DNA of 64,000 bases from Dendrophyllia cribrosa. Its lineage: Eukaryota; Cnidaria; Anthozoa; Scleractinia; Dendrophylliidae. Positions 8,603-52,375 of the stretch are shown here, piece after piece. Position 1 is the stretch's first letter, and each line of letters opens with the position of its first letter. The stretch is taken from the NCBI GenBank assembly GCA_024195265.1, contig JAJLRJ010000006.1, forward strand, positions 7,708,639-7,772,638, written 5' to 3'. Under the pieces are notes generated by a model. That model did no database searches, was not told the DNA's origin, and saw only the letters and a program-made list of their open reading frames with translations. The position numbers and the translations under genes are program-made.

Positions 8603-11600
8603 TTAGTCCAGGACGATACTTGAACCTCCAGTGAGTACTGTAGGTGTCGGTTTTGTCTTCCTTTGTGACCTAACGAAAACAAAAGGAACCAGCACGCAAT
8701 TCACAAATGAACACATGCTTAAGTATTCACCTACGTAGTAAAAGTTCAAAGCATTTTGTTGCCAGTATGCTTTCAAACAGTGATACATATCTTCTTTCAA
8801 GAAGTGTTACCTGAGTTCTTTTGCATTTCATGATAAATTGAGTAACCATATAACCAAAAATGGTTTTCAATATGATCCATTTTAAAGTGTTGTTTGAACT
8901 TTCTGAATGGGTTAAATCTACTTATTGTTTTGAGGTTAAAATAACATTTTTTAACCCATTTGTTTTTTGTTTAAAATAGCAAATCTGATGCAAATGGTCG
9001 TCTGCCACCCCGGAACACTTCAATAAAAGAGCCCTCAGCCACCGGGTTAGTAGAAATGATTCCCCCCCCCCCCCCCCCCCCAACTCGGACAATGATGTTT
9101 GGAGGAAACTACAATTGTAGTTTTTAGCGCAGAAATCAACCTTGTGATAGGGGGGCGGGGGGAGGGGGGATTTAGCAAAAAGTACTTGTCTTGAGGAATG
9201 CGATAATGCTACAACACCTCATTATCCAATATTTCCGCTCTATTATCTGTCAAGTAGATTTAAGTGGTCGCTTACGGGAGGTTAAAAACAAAAGAAAATT
9301 TCAAACTTTTAGCTCTAAAAGTGGTCGCGGTCGCTTACGAGAGGTGGTCGCTTACAAGAGGTTCCAAATATAGTGATTTGACTTGGAAACTTTGGGTATT
9401 TTGGAAAACTGGTCGCTGAGGAGAGGTGGTCGCTTACGAGAGGTGGTCGCAACCTGACGTCGACTGTATTTACATCACAATGTAATATGACACTGGTTTT
9501 GGCCGCGCACAAATCGGAGCCACTTTTTAGCGCCAACAACCTAACTTTGAGACCATAAAAAAAGCGTTTCGCATCGTCTCTAACACTTTAAACCTTTTAT
9601 TCCAAGGTCTAAAAAGATGAAACTTTCGATATACCAAAAAATAAATTACATTTCATAAACACTTTAAGTGCTACTGTTCCGAAACTGCTTGATATGAAAA
9701 GCGTCACTCTATACAAGTTAACATATGTAAATGAAAAATAACAAAAAGGAATGTTATCGTTTGTCACTCACAGAGGATAGAGGCGAAAAAATAGTAAGAA
9801 ATAATAAGATATATATTTATTTCTGACTGAGCTTTGACTGTATATAGAGTGCTCGTTACATAAATAAGGGAGAGCTAATTTAGTATAATGAGCAAGTTGT
9901 CACCAAACGGAAATCAAGACGTTAAAGTTGTTGAAACGTTGCACGTGAGTTCTGTTGTGCGTAAACTGACGACTTGCGTCTAATCTTTCGATATCATTTT
10001 ATTAGCTTCGTGTATACAGCAGCCGTTTGCAAAAATTTTAAGCCCCCCAAAATATATCATTATATCCAGGCATTGTTTGAGGTAACTGGTTAAATGGCAA
10101 GAAACCGTACACGAGAATCCCGCTGCTTGTACGCTGGATCCTTGAGGATCTGCTTCAGCAAAAAATAATTGAATATAAAACTTAAAAGCAAAGCTGAAAG
10201 CAGCGTATATTTTGTTGAGTACAATATTTCAGCTGGCCAGACCAGCCTTCTTCAGGTACAAGATGTTACTAAATAAACTAGCAGTAATCACAGATTATGG
10301 AGACGCGTTCGAAAGAATTTCCGGCGGAAATGAACCCCTGAAAAAAACCAATAGGGGCAGCCATTTGGATGACCGTCTACCAAAAAATCTCAAATTTTAC
10401 TGCACATAAACCACAGGACAACCAACACGAAATTAGGATTGCGTTCTTCGAACGCGACAATACTCATTTGTTATACGATGTTATATACATGGAGAATTTC
10501 GCGATATAGAAGAATTAAGTAACCAGGATGTGATGAAATCGGAAACTAAAACGAAAAAGTATTACATTTCATCACGTTTGTTCATGCCGTGTGGCTCTAA
10601 AGTATTACCTTTATAGATAAGATATGATTCTCTGGCTTTACGTATCGAGTCACGGGAAGTGTAAATAGTTTCTAAAGGAATTAGTTGCATGTCGGAGTTA
10701 GAATTGTTTGAGGGCATTGATCCGGAAACTTTCAGCGAGTTCCATTTTGCTGTCAGTAATGTATAGAACAGGCTTGCGCTGGAGTATAATTTAGTACATT
10801 TATATTAACTACGTAGATATTTGCGGGGTTAACCCTATCCAGACCGGGCTTTTTTTGACCGTCTGGGACCGGGGGGGGGGGGGGGGTCCAGAAGCCCCCC
10901 CTATGTAACTTTGAAACCGCTTATGCTATGGCCACCAAATTTACACAGGATAATGTTGTCATGAATTCTAGTAACTACAGATACTTTGGCGTCATAATGA
11001 CGTAACGTGACGTCATTATGACGTCATATAGTCGATTTTATTGGCTAAAACAGTCTTTCATCAATATTTTCTCAATTCTGAACATTCTGCTATGGTAACA
11101 GCGTGTGACGTCATAGAAGTGATGTGTACATGTTCTTAAAAGCTGGAACAGTTATCTTTGCAAATTATGGCTTTTCATGTACGTAATGAATTAAAAAAAA
11201 GCTTTCTCAAGTGAAAAGGACATTTTTATGATATTTTAACAATAAATGTTTAGAGATAATGGAATTACACAGACACGTAATGTACTAGAAATAAATTCTT
11301 GGATCCGCCATCTTGGATCCGCCATCTTGAATTAGTCCAAACGTGTTTATTTTGGTAAAAAACACCGAAAAATAAAGCAAATGGACTGCTAAAGCTTAGT
11401 TTATTGTGGGCAAATGTTTTACAATCCAAATATGAACCAATAATAATATTATAGAGAGAAACGACCTTTAGTAAAACTTCGATCCGCCATCCTGGATTTT
11501 GACATTTCATATTCCACATTTTCCTAAAATTACCGTTAATTAACCTTAATTAATAAACAATTATACATAATTTGATCAATTATCGCTAAATTAAGTGGAA

Positions 11601-11835
11601 AATAGTAATTCAATAAGAAATCTTTGAAATAATCTTGATTAAAGCGAAAAATGCTAATTTTGTAAAACATAGGTGTCAAAAAGCGGTTGCTATGGAAACG
11701 TCAATGTCGGTGGACAAAGGACGCTAACGTGAAAATGTTCCCAGATAAATTTTAGGAAAAGTCACCAAATTTGGTGGTCATTGCATCGACCGTTTTGAAA
11801 CGACACAACTTCAAAGTTCGAGCGGGCTCCAAAAG

Positions 11836-11866
<31 letters not shown>

Positions 11867-50283: not shown

Positions 50284-50514
50284 ATGCTGCAAAACCAGCC
50301 CGTGTTTTTGCGCAAGTCCACTGAAAAAAAAGCGTTGTTACGTGCTCAGAGTTTGCCGATTGAACAAAGGACCGCCTCCACCATAGATCAGATTCTTAGA
50401 AAAGGAAATCAACTTTATTTGGATGTTCTTGAAAGTAGATCCATCGCTGACACAGAGACCCCGTCCCTGGATTATCTGCCCAATTTGGCGTGTTGGTCTA
50501 TTGAGACTACCTGA
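50284..50514 (+). CDS. Unassigned 76-aa frame, possibly transposon-derived
   Basis: A 76-codon frame contains STIDQILRKGNQLYLDVL and later SLDYLPNLA. The spacing DxILxxGxxLYxxV...LPxx recalls a motif seen in large transposon-encoded proteins (helitron or OTU-type contexts), but I cannot name the family with confidence. It is short and lacks flanking domains, so it is probably a relic. It lies 62 bp beyond the stop of gene D, on the opposite strand. Confidence 0.3.
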   Translation: MLQNQPVFLRKSTEKKALLRAQSLPIEQRTASTIDQILRKGNQLYLDVLESRSIADTETPSLDYLPNLACWSIETT

Positions 50515-50575
50515 TTTAAACAATTTTTAAACAATATTTGAAACTACAGAAAGCTATCAAAATATTTGGACTGAG

Positions 50576-52375
50576 TCAGTTCATCTCATACGAATCTTGG
50601 TCTTGATCATCTGAGACTAATCTCGGTGGAGGGCGAGTGACAGCGTCTGGCTCCTGCCCAGTCTAACAAAATAATAAATAAATGAATGAATGAATGAATA
50701 AATAAGTAAATAAATAAATAAATAAATACACAAATGAATAAATAAACTAGAAATACGTGTCTTGCAGAACCTCGCGAAGCTCGGGTAGGATGCACCGCAA
50801 AATTTTATATGTTTTAAACGCGCTCATTCGCTCATGGAGGCGTTCATTCTCTGAATAAGGTTTACATTTTTTTTTTTCGTCGATTCTTGTCCATTGGTTT
50901 ACTGATGAGGACGTTTTCTAGACAATCCATTGAAATCATTTTGTGATCCATCTTGCGAAAAGAAACGTCATGATGGCCTCAGCATATAGTGGCCTATCAC
51001 TGTGTGCAATTAGTTTGATGTATGACAACACTGGATGTTATCCGATTGACTTTTAGCTTTCCATATACAGTGGAACCTCGATTTAGCGAAGTGCCATTGG
51101 TTCGTTACATCGAGGGTTCTTTATATCGAAAACCTCGTTATAACGAATATTTGCGGAAAAACAACCAAAATGTTCGTTATATCGAGGTATAGTTAATAAT
51201 TGTTTTGTAACGGTGTTACGTATTTCTGGATCTTAACAATTAACATTTGCACTTTAATGCCTGTATGAAGCTACAGTACACTGTAAACTTAACTACGGCA
51301 CTGGAAAACTGTAGCGGTTATATACCTTTGCCCTATAGCACACACTGTTGGTCTGTTCCGCATTCATAATTTGTCGCACGTTGACATTTCTTCATTATAT
51401 CGGGGTAGATTTTACGTTTGGGCTACCGGATTGTGTTCGTTATAACGAGGACTTCGTTATATCGAGGTTCTGTTCTATACATTTCACATGTAATTTTGCC
51501 GGGCTGAAGAATATCGTTCGATATACCGAGGACTTCGTTATATAGAGGTTCGTTAAATCGAGGTTCCACTGTATTCAATTGTTACATATTTTAATACTTT
51601 ATACGTAGTTCTAGTATTTTTAAAATACCCTCTCATTTTAGTTTTGTTATCTTTATTTTGTGGCGTAACCAAAATTTTTAGCAGGATGCAGCGATACAGT
51701 ACAATTCAATGCAATGCAATGTAATGTCATGTAATACAATACAATGCAATGCCATATAATATAATGCAATGCAATACAATACAAAATAATGCAATGCACT
51801 GCAATACAATGCATTCCACAATGCAATGCAATACAATACAAAACAATGCAATACAAAACAATGCAATGCAATACAAAACAATGCAATGCAATACAATACA
51901 AAACAATGCAATACAAAGCAACACAAAACAAAACAATGAAATGGAATACAATACAATACAATTCAATACAATACAATACAATGCAATACAATACAATACG
52001 TTATTTATACAACGATTAAAATAAAAGTGACCCTTGTGGGATCGTTTTACTGCTTTTTTATACACAATGTAATGTACTGTTATTCTAACTAAACTTGCTA
52101 TAATTCAGATATTATAGTTACCATAATGATAGTAATTGACCACGTATTTTTCTTTGCTTTAAAACCCTGCATACCTGAAAGGAAGCCAACGCATTAGACA
52201 GACGACTGCCTTTCGTGTTCGTCTTCGTGTTGGTGTTCGTGTTCGTGGTCGTCTTTGTCTTCGTCTTCGTGTGAGGTCGTCTTCGGCGTACTATAAATCC
52301 CCGTGTGTAGTCTAACAGAACGCAGCTAAGAATAAGCCACAAGGTTATGATTGTAAAGAGACGTTTTGAATCCAT
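50576..52375 (-). CDS. Secreted basic peptide, family member D (two exons)
   Basis: Exon 1 (52175-52375) has the leader MDSKRLFTIITLWLILSC (cleavage near TRG, residue 26), then FIVRRRRP and a Thr/Lys/Asn repeat (HTKTKTKTTTNTNTNTKT). It ends at donor TTTCAG|GTATGC, phase 0. Exon 2 (50576-50662) follows acceptor TTGTTAG, starts TGQEPDAVTRPPPRLVS and ends with an acidic DDQDQDSYEMN before TGA. The total is 95 residues. The 1.5-kb intron carries a Tigger MITE, a pentamer satellite and a microsatellite. The Thr/Lys run comes from the same CGAAGA hexamer that codes Arg runs in A-C, read one base out of phase. The upstream DNA matches gene C. The function is unknown. Confidence 0.7.
50680..50745. 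repeat. (AAAT/GAAT)n microsatellite in the intron of gene D
   Basis: A run of AATA and AATG tetramers directly upstream of the exon 2 acceptor region. It is variable but uninterrupted over about 65 bp. Confidence 0.9.
51068..51572. mobile_element. Tigger/pogo-like MITE, complete, in the intron of gene D
   Basis: CAGTGGAACCTCGATTTAGC at the left and AAATCGAGGTTCCACTG at the right are inverted and flanked by TA. The body consists of TTCGTTATATCGAGG words. It matches the older copy at 19238-19725. Confidence 0.85.
51690..52002. repeat. Pentanucleotide satellite (CAATA/CAATG)n
   Basis: About 300 bp of AATAC/AATGC pentamers in irregular order. Long Cys/Ile/Leu frames on the minus strand arise from this repeat and are not genes. 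It lies in the intron of gene D. Confidence 0.95.

What the first reader, a model, noticed from the sequence alone, without database searches (positions are those of the whole stretch)
8603..52375. Family of four two-exon secreted Arg-rich peptides with a conserved leader and diverging mature part
Seen: four minus-strand exons start with MDSK and carry LILSC.L, followed by Arg-rich or Thr/Lys-rich segments. Each has a GTATG/GTATT donor and a homologous short second exon downstream ending around an AACTGA context. Known: conserved leaders with variable mature regions are typical of antimicrobial, venom or neuropeptide families. Inference: an undescribed coral secreted cationic peptide family, perhaps for defence or mineral/matrix binding. 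Aromatic residues begin the mature part (FW, GLW, WV, FI).
Basis: partly seen in the sequence, partly recalled or inferred. Interest (0 to 1): 0.88.

Follow-up and report, generated by a model that had tools for sequence, protein, structure and literature searches.

The report
Tandem family of secreted cationic-peptide genes
Four neighbouring copies of a small two-part gene, in what looks like an animal genome, seem to make short secreted peptides that keep the same export signal and a positively charged stretch while the rest has changed almost beyond recognition, a pattern typical of defence peptides.

Summary
Exon 1 and exon 2 are each homologous in 4 of 4 copies (leave-one-out E ≤1.6e-23 and ≤6.4e-8); no further convincing copy was found in the window. 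The first 22 codons are 74-85% identical, while exon 1 after the leader (47-54%) beats no shuffle maximum. A basic run follows the leader in 4 of 4; the exon-1 mature parts have net charge +11, +12, +3 and +10. Corrections: copy 1 splices in another phase, so its exon 2 is read in a different frame; copy 4's tract is a hexamer repeat read in a Thr/Lys/Asn frame, with another frame Arg-rich; the exon-2 tails are mixed in charge (+3, -1, +1, -5). Best explanation: a locally duplicated family of secreted cationic peptides, most likely membrane-active host-defence peptides. Function is inferred. Genome-wide copy number, relatives elsewhere, transcripts and coral origin could not be tested: the genome search was unreachable in seven tries and the protein database was switched off.

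The parts
12845..13026 (-). copy 1 exon 1: leader MDSKRLFAFIILWLILSCELFDNAQG, then FWPNKRRRKGRRGKTQRRRPPVHENENLKRWANL; donor AAG|GTATTC (phase 2)
8603..8669 (-). copy 1 exon 2; after the phase-2 donor reads RSQRKTKPTPTVLTGGSSIVLD then TAA, a frame different from copies 2 and 3
18364..18540 (-). copy 2 exon 1: leader longer than the others before the cleavage site, then LWPYRLRRRRRRRPSDVKKKRYGTLKCL; donor TTG|GTATGT (phase 0)
17947..18015 (-). copy 2 exon 2: IAEEDQADTQSTQPRRCKLLPG then TGA
27160..27357 (-). copy 3 exon 1: leader, then WVRAGRRRRRRRRISPSLPDHNEKSVTDLNEEHDVVIDSW; donor TGG|GTATGT (phase 0)
26196..26264 (-). copy 3 exon 2: TAKDEEADNYSGTPRTSKLRPR then TGA
52175..52375 (-). copy 4 exon 1: leader, then FIVRRRR and a Thr/Lys/Asn-rich stretch; donor CAG|GTATGC (phase 0)
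50576..50662 (-). copy 4 exon 2: TGQEPDAVTRPPPRLVSDDQDQDSYEMN then TGA; 13 extra bases in the alignment
52212..52272 (-). hexamer tandem repeat (10.2 units) coding much of the Thr/Lys/Asn stretch of copy 4; the +1 frame would read Arg-rich and the +2 frame Asp/Glu-rich
27358..27606 (-). upstream/5'UTR region of copy 3, homologous to that of copy 4 (52376-52558)
52376..52558 (-). upstream/5'UTR region of copy 4, homologous to that of copy 3

Best explanation
A tandem family of four small secretory genes that arose by local duplication. Exon 1 encodes a signal peptide, probably cut after the conserved Gly just before an aromatic or bulky residue, plus a basic run; exon 2 encodes a short tail of mixed charge. 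The peptides most likely act as host-defence (antimicrobial or microbiome-shaping) peptides: an aromatic N-terminus plus a run of Arg or Lys would bind anionic microbial surfaces and insert into or cross their membranes, and the less basic or acidic later part (clearest in copies 3 and 4) may balance the charge until secretion or clipping. Shown: homology, gene structure, leader conservation against mature divergence, a basic run and a net positive mature part in 4 of 4. Inferred: transcription, secretion, cleavage, activity, and any role of the tail.
For: Exon 1 and exon 2 are homologous in 4 of 4 copies and paired in order on one strand. Mean hydropathy of the leader is 2.15-2.66 over 17 residues in 4 of 4. 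A small-residue site lies before F/L/W/F in 4 of 4 (AQG|F, TPG|L, AEG|W, TRG|F). Leader dN/dS estimates are 0.21-0.88 over 6 pairs. Leader identity of 0.74-0.85 exceeds every shuffle in 6 of 6 pairs, while post-leader exon 1 (0.47-0.54) does so in 0 of 6. Net charge of the whole mature part is +14, +11, +4 and +5 for copies 1-4, and of the best 20-residue stretch +11, +11, +8 and +7. Copies 1, 2 and 3 each use four different Arg codons, so the Arg runs are not a pure repeat. Tandem clusters, signal peptide and two-part charge are described for Hydra antimicrobial peptide families (passages of PMC10945409).
Against: No transcript, peptide or activity data. Copy 1 is out of phase with the family frame of exon 2. 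Copy 3 is only weakly positive overall (+4) and its exon-1 part +3; exon-2 tails are +3, -1, +1, -5, so a conserved acidic tail is not shown. The excess of changes at third codon positions is not significant (leader p=0.10, exon 2 p=0.14), and one leader pair (c2/c3) has dN/dS 0.88. Charge order differs from arminins (acidic first). No cysteine scaffold.
Confidence: 0.48

Rival explanations
1. Prohormone or neuropeptide-like precursors: the Arg run is a convertase site that frees a very short N-terminal peptide (FWPN, LWPY, WVRA-amide, FIV) and a C-terminal peptide.
For: The aromatic or bulky residue follows the predicted signal cleavage in 4 of 4 and a basic run begins within a few residues. 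Copy 3 has Gly before the Arg run, as for amidation (recalled rule).
Against: The short peptides differ among copies. A stony-coral GLWamide precursor has 7 GLW motifs and 7 Gly-Arg amidation sites in 260 residues (PMC7287070 passages), whereas here there is one unit per gene. Runs of seven or eight Arg are more than a convertase needs (recalled).
Confidence: 0.15
2. Extracellular matrix or mineral-binding peptides that use the Arg/Lys tract to bind polyanions (acidic glycans, mucus, acidic skeletal proteins).
For: A basic tract retained without sequence conservation suits polyanion binding.
Against: No link to skeleton or matrix could be tested, and rapid divergence of paralogues is less expected for structural roles.
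Confidence: 0.12
3. Membrane-anchored peptides: the hydrophobic leader is not cut and the Arg-rich side stays in the cytoplasm (positive-inside rule, recalled).
For: The hydrophobic stretch is followed by four to eight consecutive Arg in copies 2-4 and a mixed Arg/Lys run in copy 1.
Against: A cleavable small-residue site lies before the tract in 4 of 4, and Gly is kept there although copy 2 gained residues.
Confidence: 0.08
4. Partly decayed family: some copies (1 and perhaps 4) are pseudogenes and divergence of the mature part is largely neutral.
For: Copy 1 reads exon 2 in another frame and lacks the family stop in the family frame; copy 4 exon 2 has 13 extra bases in the alignment; some dN/dS near 0.9; third-position excess not significant.
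Against: All four leaders and post-leader exon-1 frames are open to the donor, and every spliced model ends in a stop near the same place.
Confidence: 0.13
5. The exons are cargo of a high-copy transposon.
For: The window is full of repeats, and one repeat is shared, in opposite orientation, between the region upstream of copy 1 (13164-13379) and the intron of copy 3 (27047-26788).
Against: Homology common to the copies is confined to exons and near flanks; introns differ in length (348, 895, 1512 and 4175 bases); all copies share strand and order. Genome-wide copy number could not be tested.
Confidence: 0.04

Closest known systems
Hydra arminins and periculins (taxon-restricted antimicrobial peptide families)
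   Same: Signal peptide, conserved N-terminal part, poorly conserved cationic part, tandem clusters of paralogues (PMC10945409 and PMC4820302 passages)
   Different: In arminins the conserved region is negatively charged and precedes the cationic C-terminus; here the basic run follows the leader directly and the later part is mixed (exon-2 net +3, -1, +1, -5). Periculins have complex cysteine patterns; here only copy 2 has Cys in the mature part (2). No sequence comparison was made.
AmAMP1 / damicornin, coral ShK-related antimicrobial peptides
   Same: Small peptides of corals named as antimicrobial (table and reference-list passages of PMC11820242)
   Different: They are ShK-related by the title of the cited work (cysteine-stabilised, recalled); these peptides lack a cysteine scaffold
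GLWamide preprohormones
   Same: Copy 2 has GLW across the end of the leader, followed by basic residues
   Different: One GLWP, no repeated GLWGR units (compare PMC7287070 passages)
Apela/Toddler (Pfam PF22050)
   Same: Weak hit to copy 1 exon 1 only; signal peptide followed by a basic short peptide (recalled)
   Different: 13.4 bits against a cut-off of 27, E=0.1: not a member

Membership tests
Arminin | conserved negatively charged region before a cationic C-terminus | tested here: not met
   The basic run follows the leader directly in 4 of 4; exon-2 tails are net +3, -1, +1 and -5; definition from PMC4820302 passages
Arminin | sequence homology to arminins | not tested
   No arminin sequence was compared; the protein database was off
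AmAMP1/damicornin or other cysteine-rich antimicrobial peptides | cysteine scaffold in the mature peptide (recalled) | tested here: not met
   0, 2, 0 and 0 Cys in the mature parts of copies 1-4
GLWamide preprohormone | several GLWG(R/K) units | tested here: not met
   1 GLWP in copy 2, none in the others (definition)
Apela/Toddler PF22050 | score above curated cut-off | tested here: not met
   13.4 against 27 bits, copy 1 only (which held copy 1 without exon 2)
PROL5-SMR PF15621 | score above curated cut-off | tested here: not met
   17.4 against 25.3 bits, E=0.0054, copy 3 only
Secreted cationic host-defence peptide (functional class) | cleavable signal peptide | tested here: inconclusive
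   Hydrophobic core and small-residue rule satisfied in 4 of 4; no SignalP available
Secreted cationic host-defence peptide (functional class) | net positive mature peptide | tested here: met
   Net +14, +11, +4 and +5 for the whole mature part of copies 1-4; copies 3 and 4 only moderately so
Secreted cationic host-defence peptide (functional class) | antimicrobial activity | not testable with these tools
   needs synthesis and assay

The most novel reading that the evidence does not exclude
An undescribed lineage-restricted family of secreted peptides in which a purine-rich hexamer tract behind a fixed signal peptide can switch its product by slippage and frame change between Arg-rich, Thr/Lys-rich and Asp/Glu-rich, while exon 2 is also read in more than one frame: a fast generator of new secreted peptides from one locus.
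Probability: 0.15. Interest if true: 0.75.

Novelty: new member of a known kind. Interest (0 to 1): 0.45.

Why it matters
If transcribed, it adds a tandem, fast-diverging secreted cationic peptide family of the kind reported to shape the microbiome in Hydra (PMC10945409, title and passages), here almost without cysteines and with the basic part directly behind the leader, and it gives concrete peptides to synthesise. The frame relation between the Arg-rich copies and the Thr/Lys copy offers a simple, testable route by which mature peptides change sharply while the export signal stays fixed.

Tried and rejected
Transposon cargo: disfavoured by homology limited to exons and near flanks and by unlike introns. 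Extra copies in the window: none convincing; best further exon-2 hit 33125-33075, E=0.06, and 0.02 in one leave-one-out run. Known domains: Pfam only sub-threshold hits (Toddler E=0.1, PROL5-SMR E=0.0054, DUF4834 E=0.07); NCBIfam 0 for 4 members; solved structures 0. Viral contigs: 6 pattern matches whose translations do not continue the leader, and 60 pattern matches with 0 relatives by tblastn. Phage records: no match for one 2 kb stretch. Literature: three leader strings in 0 papers; topic searches (two searches returned 0 papers) listed no paper evidently about such a family, judged from titles and abstract starts only. Codon-position test not significant. A bacterial promoter/terminator scan is not relevant to this genome.
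Full report
Observation. All four introns are GT..AG with acceptors ending TTAG; their lengths are 4175, 348, 895 and 1512.

More than chance. A DNA profile of exon 1 and one of exon 2 each find four strong places. When each copy is left out of its own profile it is still found: 2.1e-24, 1.6e-23, 3.2e-33 and 1.9e-30 for exon 1; 2.7e-14, 4.1e-15, 5.3e-18 and 6.4e-8 for exon 2. The best other place is E=2.5 for exon 1 and E=0.06 for exon 2 (0.02 in one leave-one-out run), and the reversed window gave nothing better than E=2.4. 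Exon 2 and exon 1 alternate along the window on one strand. A scan for ORFs with a hydrophobic leader and a later basic stretch gave 5 in the window (these four and one at 22085 +), and 1 in total in 30 second-order Markov copies.

Conserved leader, diverged rest. Identity per region over six pairs of copies, against 100 shuffles each: first 22 codons 0.74-0.85, above all shuffles in 6 of 6; exon 1 after the leader 0.47-0.54, above in 0 of 6; 100 bases before the ATG, above in 2 of 6 (copies 3 and 4: 0.79); the 150 bases before that, 0 of 6; exon-2 coding part, 2 of 6; first and last 80 bases of the intron, 1 of 6 each; 60 bases after the stop and the next 100, 0 of 6 each. This global comparison is less sensitive than the profiles, where exon 2 is recovered in 4 of 4, and than the local matches, which carry the homology of copies 3 and 4 further upstream. 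Leader amino-acid identity is 0.42-0.69 and mature identity 0.19-0.34; the latter exceeds the shuffles only for copies 2 and 3. Counting-method dN/dS for leaders is 0.21, 0.23, 0.23, 0.26, 0.59 and 0.88, on only 13.8-17.7 synonymous sites per pair; for exon 2 (copies 1-3, in the frame of copies 2 and 3) it is 0.34, 0.53 and 0.88. Third-position excess is in the expected direction but not significant. Coding is likely but not proven by substitution pattern.

Anatomy. The leader has a hydrophobic core (mean hydropathy 2.15-2.66 over 17 residues) and, by the small-residue rule, a possible cleavage site directly before F, L, W and F in copies 1-4. Other sites also meet this loose rule (ILS|C and LSC|E or V in all four, LLQ|D in copy 2, VRA|G in copy 3). 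After it come FWPNKRRRKGRRGKTQRRR, LWPYRLRRRRRRR, WVRAGRRRRRRRR and FIVRRRRPHTKTK. Net charge of the exon-1 mature part is +11, +12, +3 and +10; of the exon-2 part +3, -1, +1 and -5; of the whole mature part +14, +11, +4 and +5. Copy 3's low sum comes from an acidic stretch behind its eight Arg. A basic run is thus shared by 4 of 4, but a common acidic tail is not shown.

First, copy 1 uses a phase-2 donor where the others use phase 0. Its exon 2 is then read in a frame unlike that of copies 2 and 3, and in their frame the family stop is absent. Other GT sites of copy 1 would read exon 2 in the family frame (12885 and 12774), but they are not at the position aligned with the donors of the other copies. 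Copy 1 may have a new tail, use another donor, or be failing. Second, much of the Thr/Lys/Asn stretch of copy 4 is a hexamer repeat (52212-52272, 10.2 units). Its +1 frame reads TRRRRQRRPRTRTPTRRRTRK and its +2 frame is rich in Asp, Glu and His. Copy 4 therefore may read the same kind of purine-rich tract in a shifted frame, so a sharp change of the mature peptide could come from a frame change within the tract (inference).

What it is. Local duplication of a small secretory gene is the simplest account. Copies 3 and 4 look closest: they share a local match that reaches 249 and 183 bases before their ATGs and have the highest leader identity (0.85). Repeats fill much of the surroundings, one of them shared in opposite orientation between the region upstream of copy 1 and the intron of copy 3, but nothing suggests that the exons themselves are a mobile element. 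No library gives a family. The best-supported function class is a secreted cationic host-defence peptide. Passages of PMC10945409 describe Hydra antimicrobial peptides as derived from precursors with a signal peptide, mostly with a two-part charge distribution and a complex cysteine pattern, in tandem paralogue clusters, and periculins and arminins as confined to the genus Hydra. [quoted passage not shown] Passages of PMC12013895 describe arminin-like precursors in a placozoan with the same acidic-then-basic order. The present family may work like these but is not shown to be one of them: the basic part lies directly behind the leader, and no sequence comparison was possible. Neuropeptide and matrix roles remain open.

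Limits. 'Coral', 'undescribed' and 'low copy' are therefore untested here; two-exon structure and the reverse-transcriptase and repeat content point to a eukaryote (inference). Of the papers named I saw passages only, otherwise search listings.

Noticed in passing
59362-59405 (-): Type I hammerhead ribozyme, 44.1 bits against a gathering score of 34, E=5e-8, a few hundred bases before a reverse-transcriptase region on the other strand
   Followed up: no
59679-63553 (+): Broken open frames of a probable LINE-like element; Pfam RVT_1 at E=3.5e-27 and 2.3e-9 in two adjacent pieces, no family above cut-off for the other three pieces scanned
   Followed up: partly
22117-23225 and 47307-48388: Two copies of a repeat of about 1.1 kb, 92% identical, ending in shorter repeats also seen at 52704-52920
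   Followed up: no
19808-20256 and 45590-46208: Near-perfect duplications: two 224-base units head to tail (99%), and 243 bases repeated exactly, starts 376 bases apart
   Followed up: no
37384-37964: Long 16-base minisatellite, 32.3 units (GAAAATGAGGAGTGTG), open in several minus-strand frames
   Followed up: no
12757-12795: 17-base direct repeat just inside the intron of the copy 1 model, near where homology with the other copies is lost; possibly a repeat insertion that changed its donor phase
   Followed up: partly
22085 (+): The fifth ORF of the leader-plus-basic-stretch scan, without the MDSK leader
   Followed up: no
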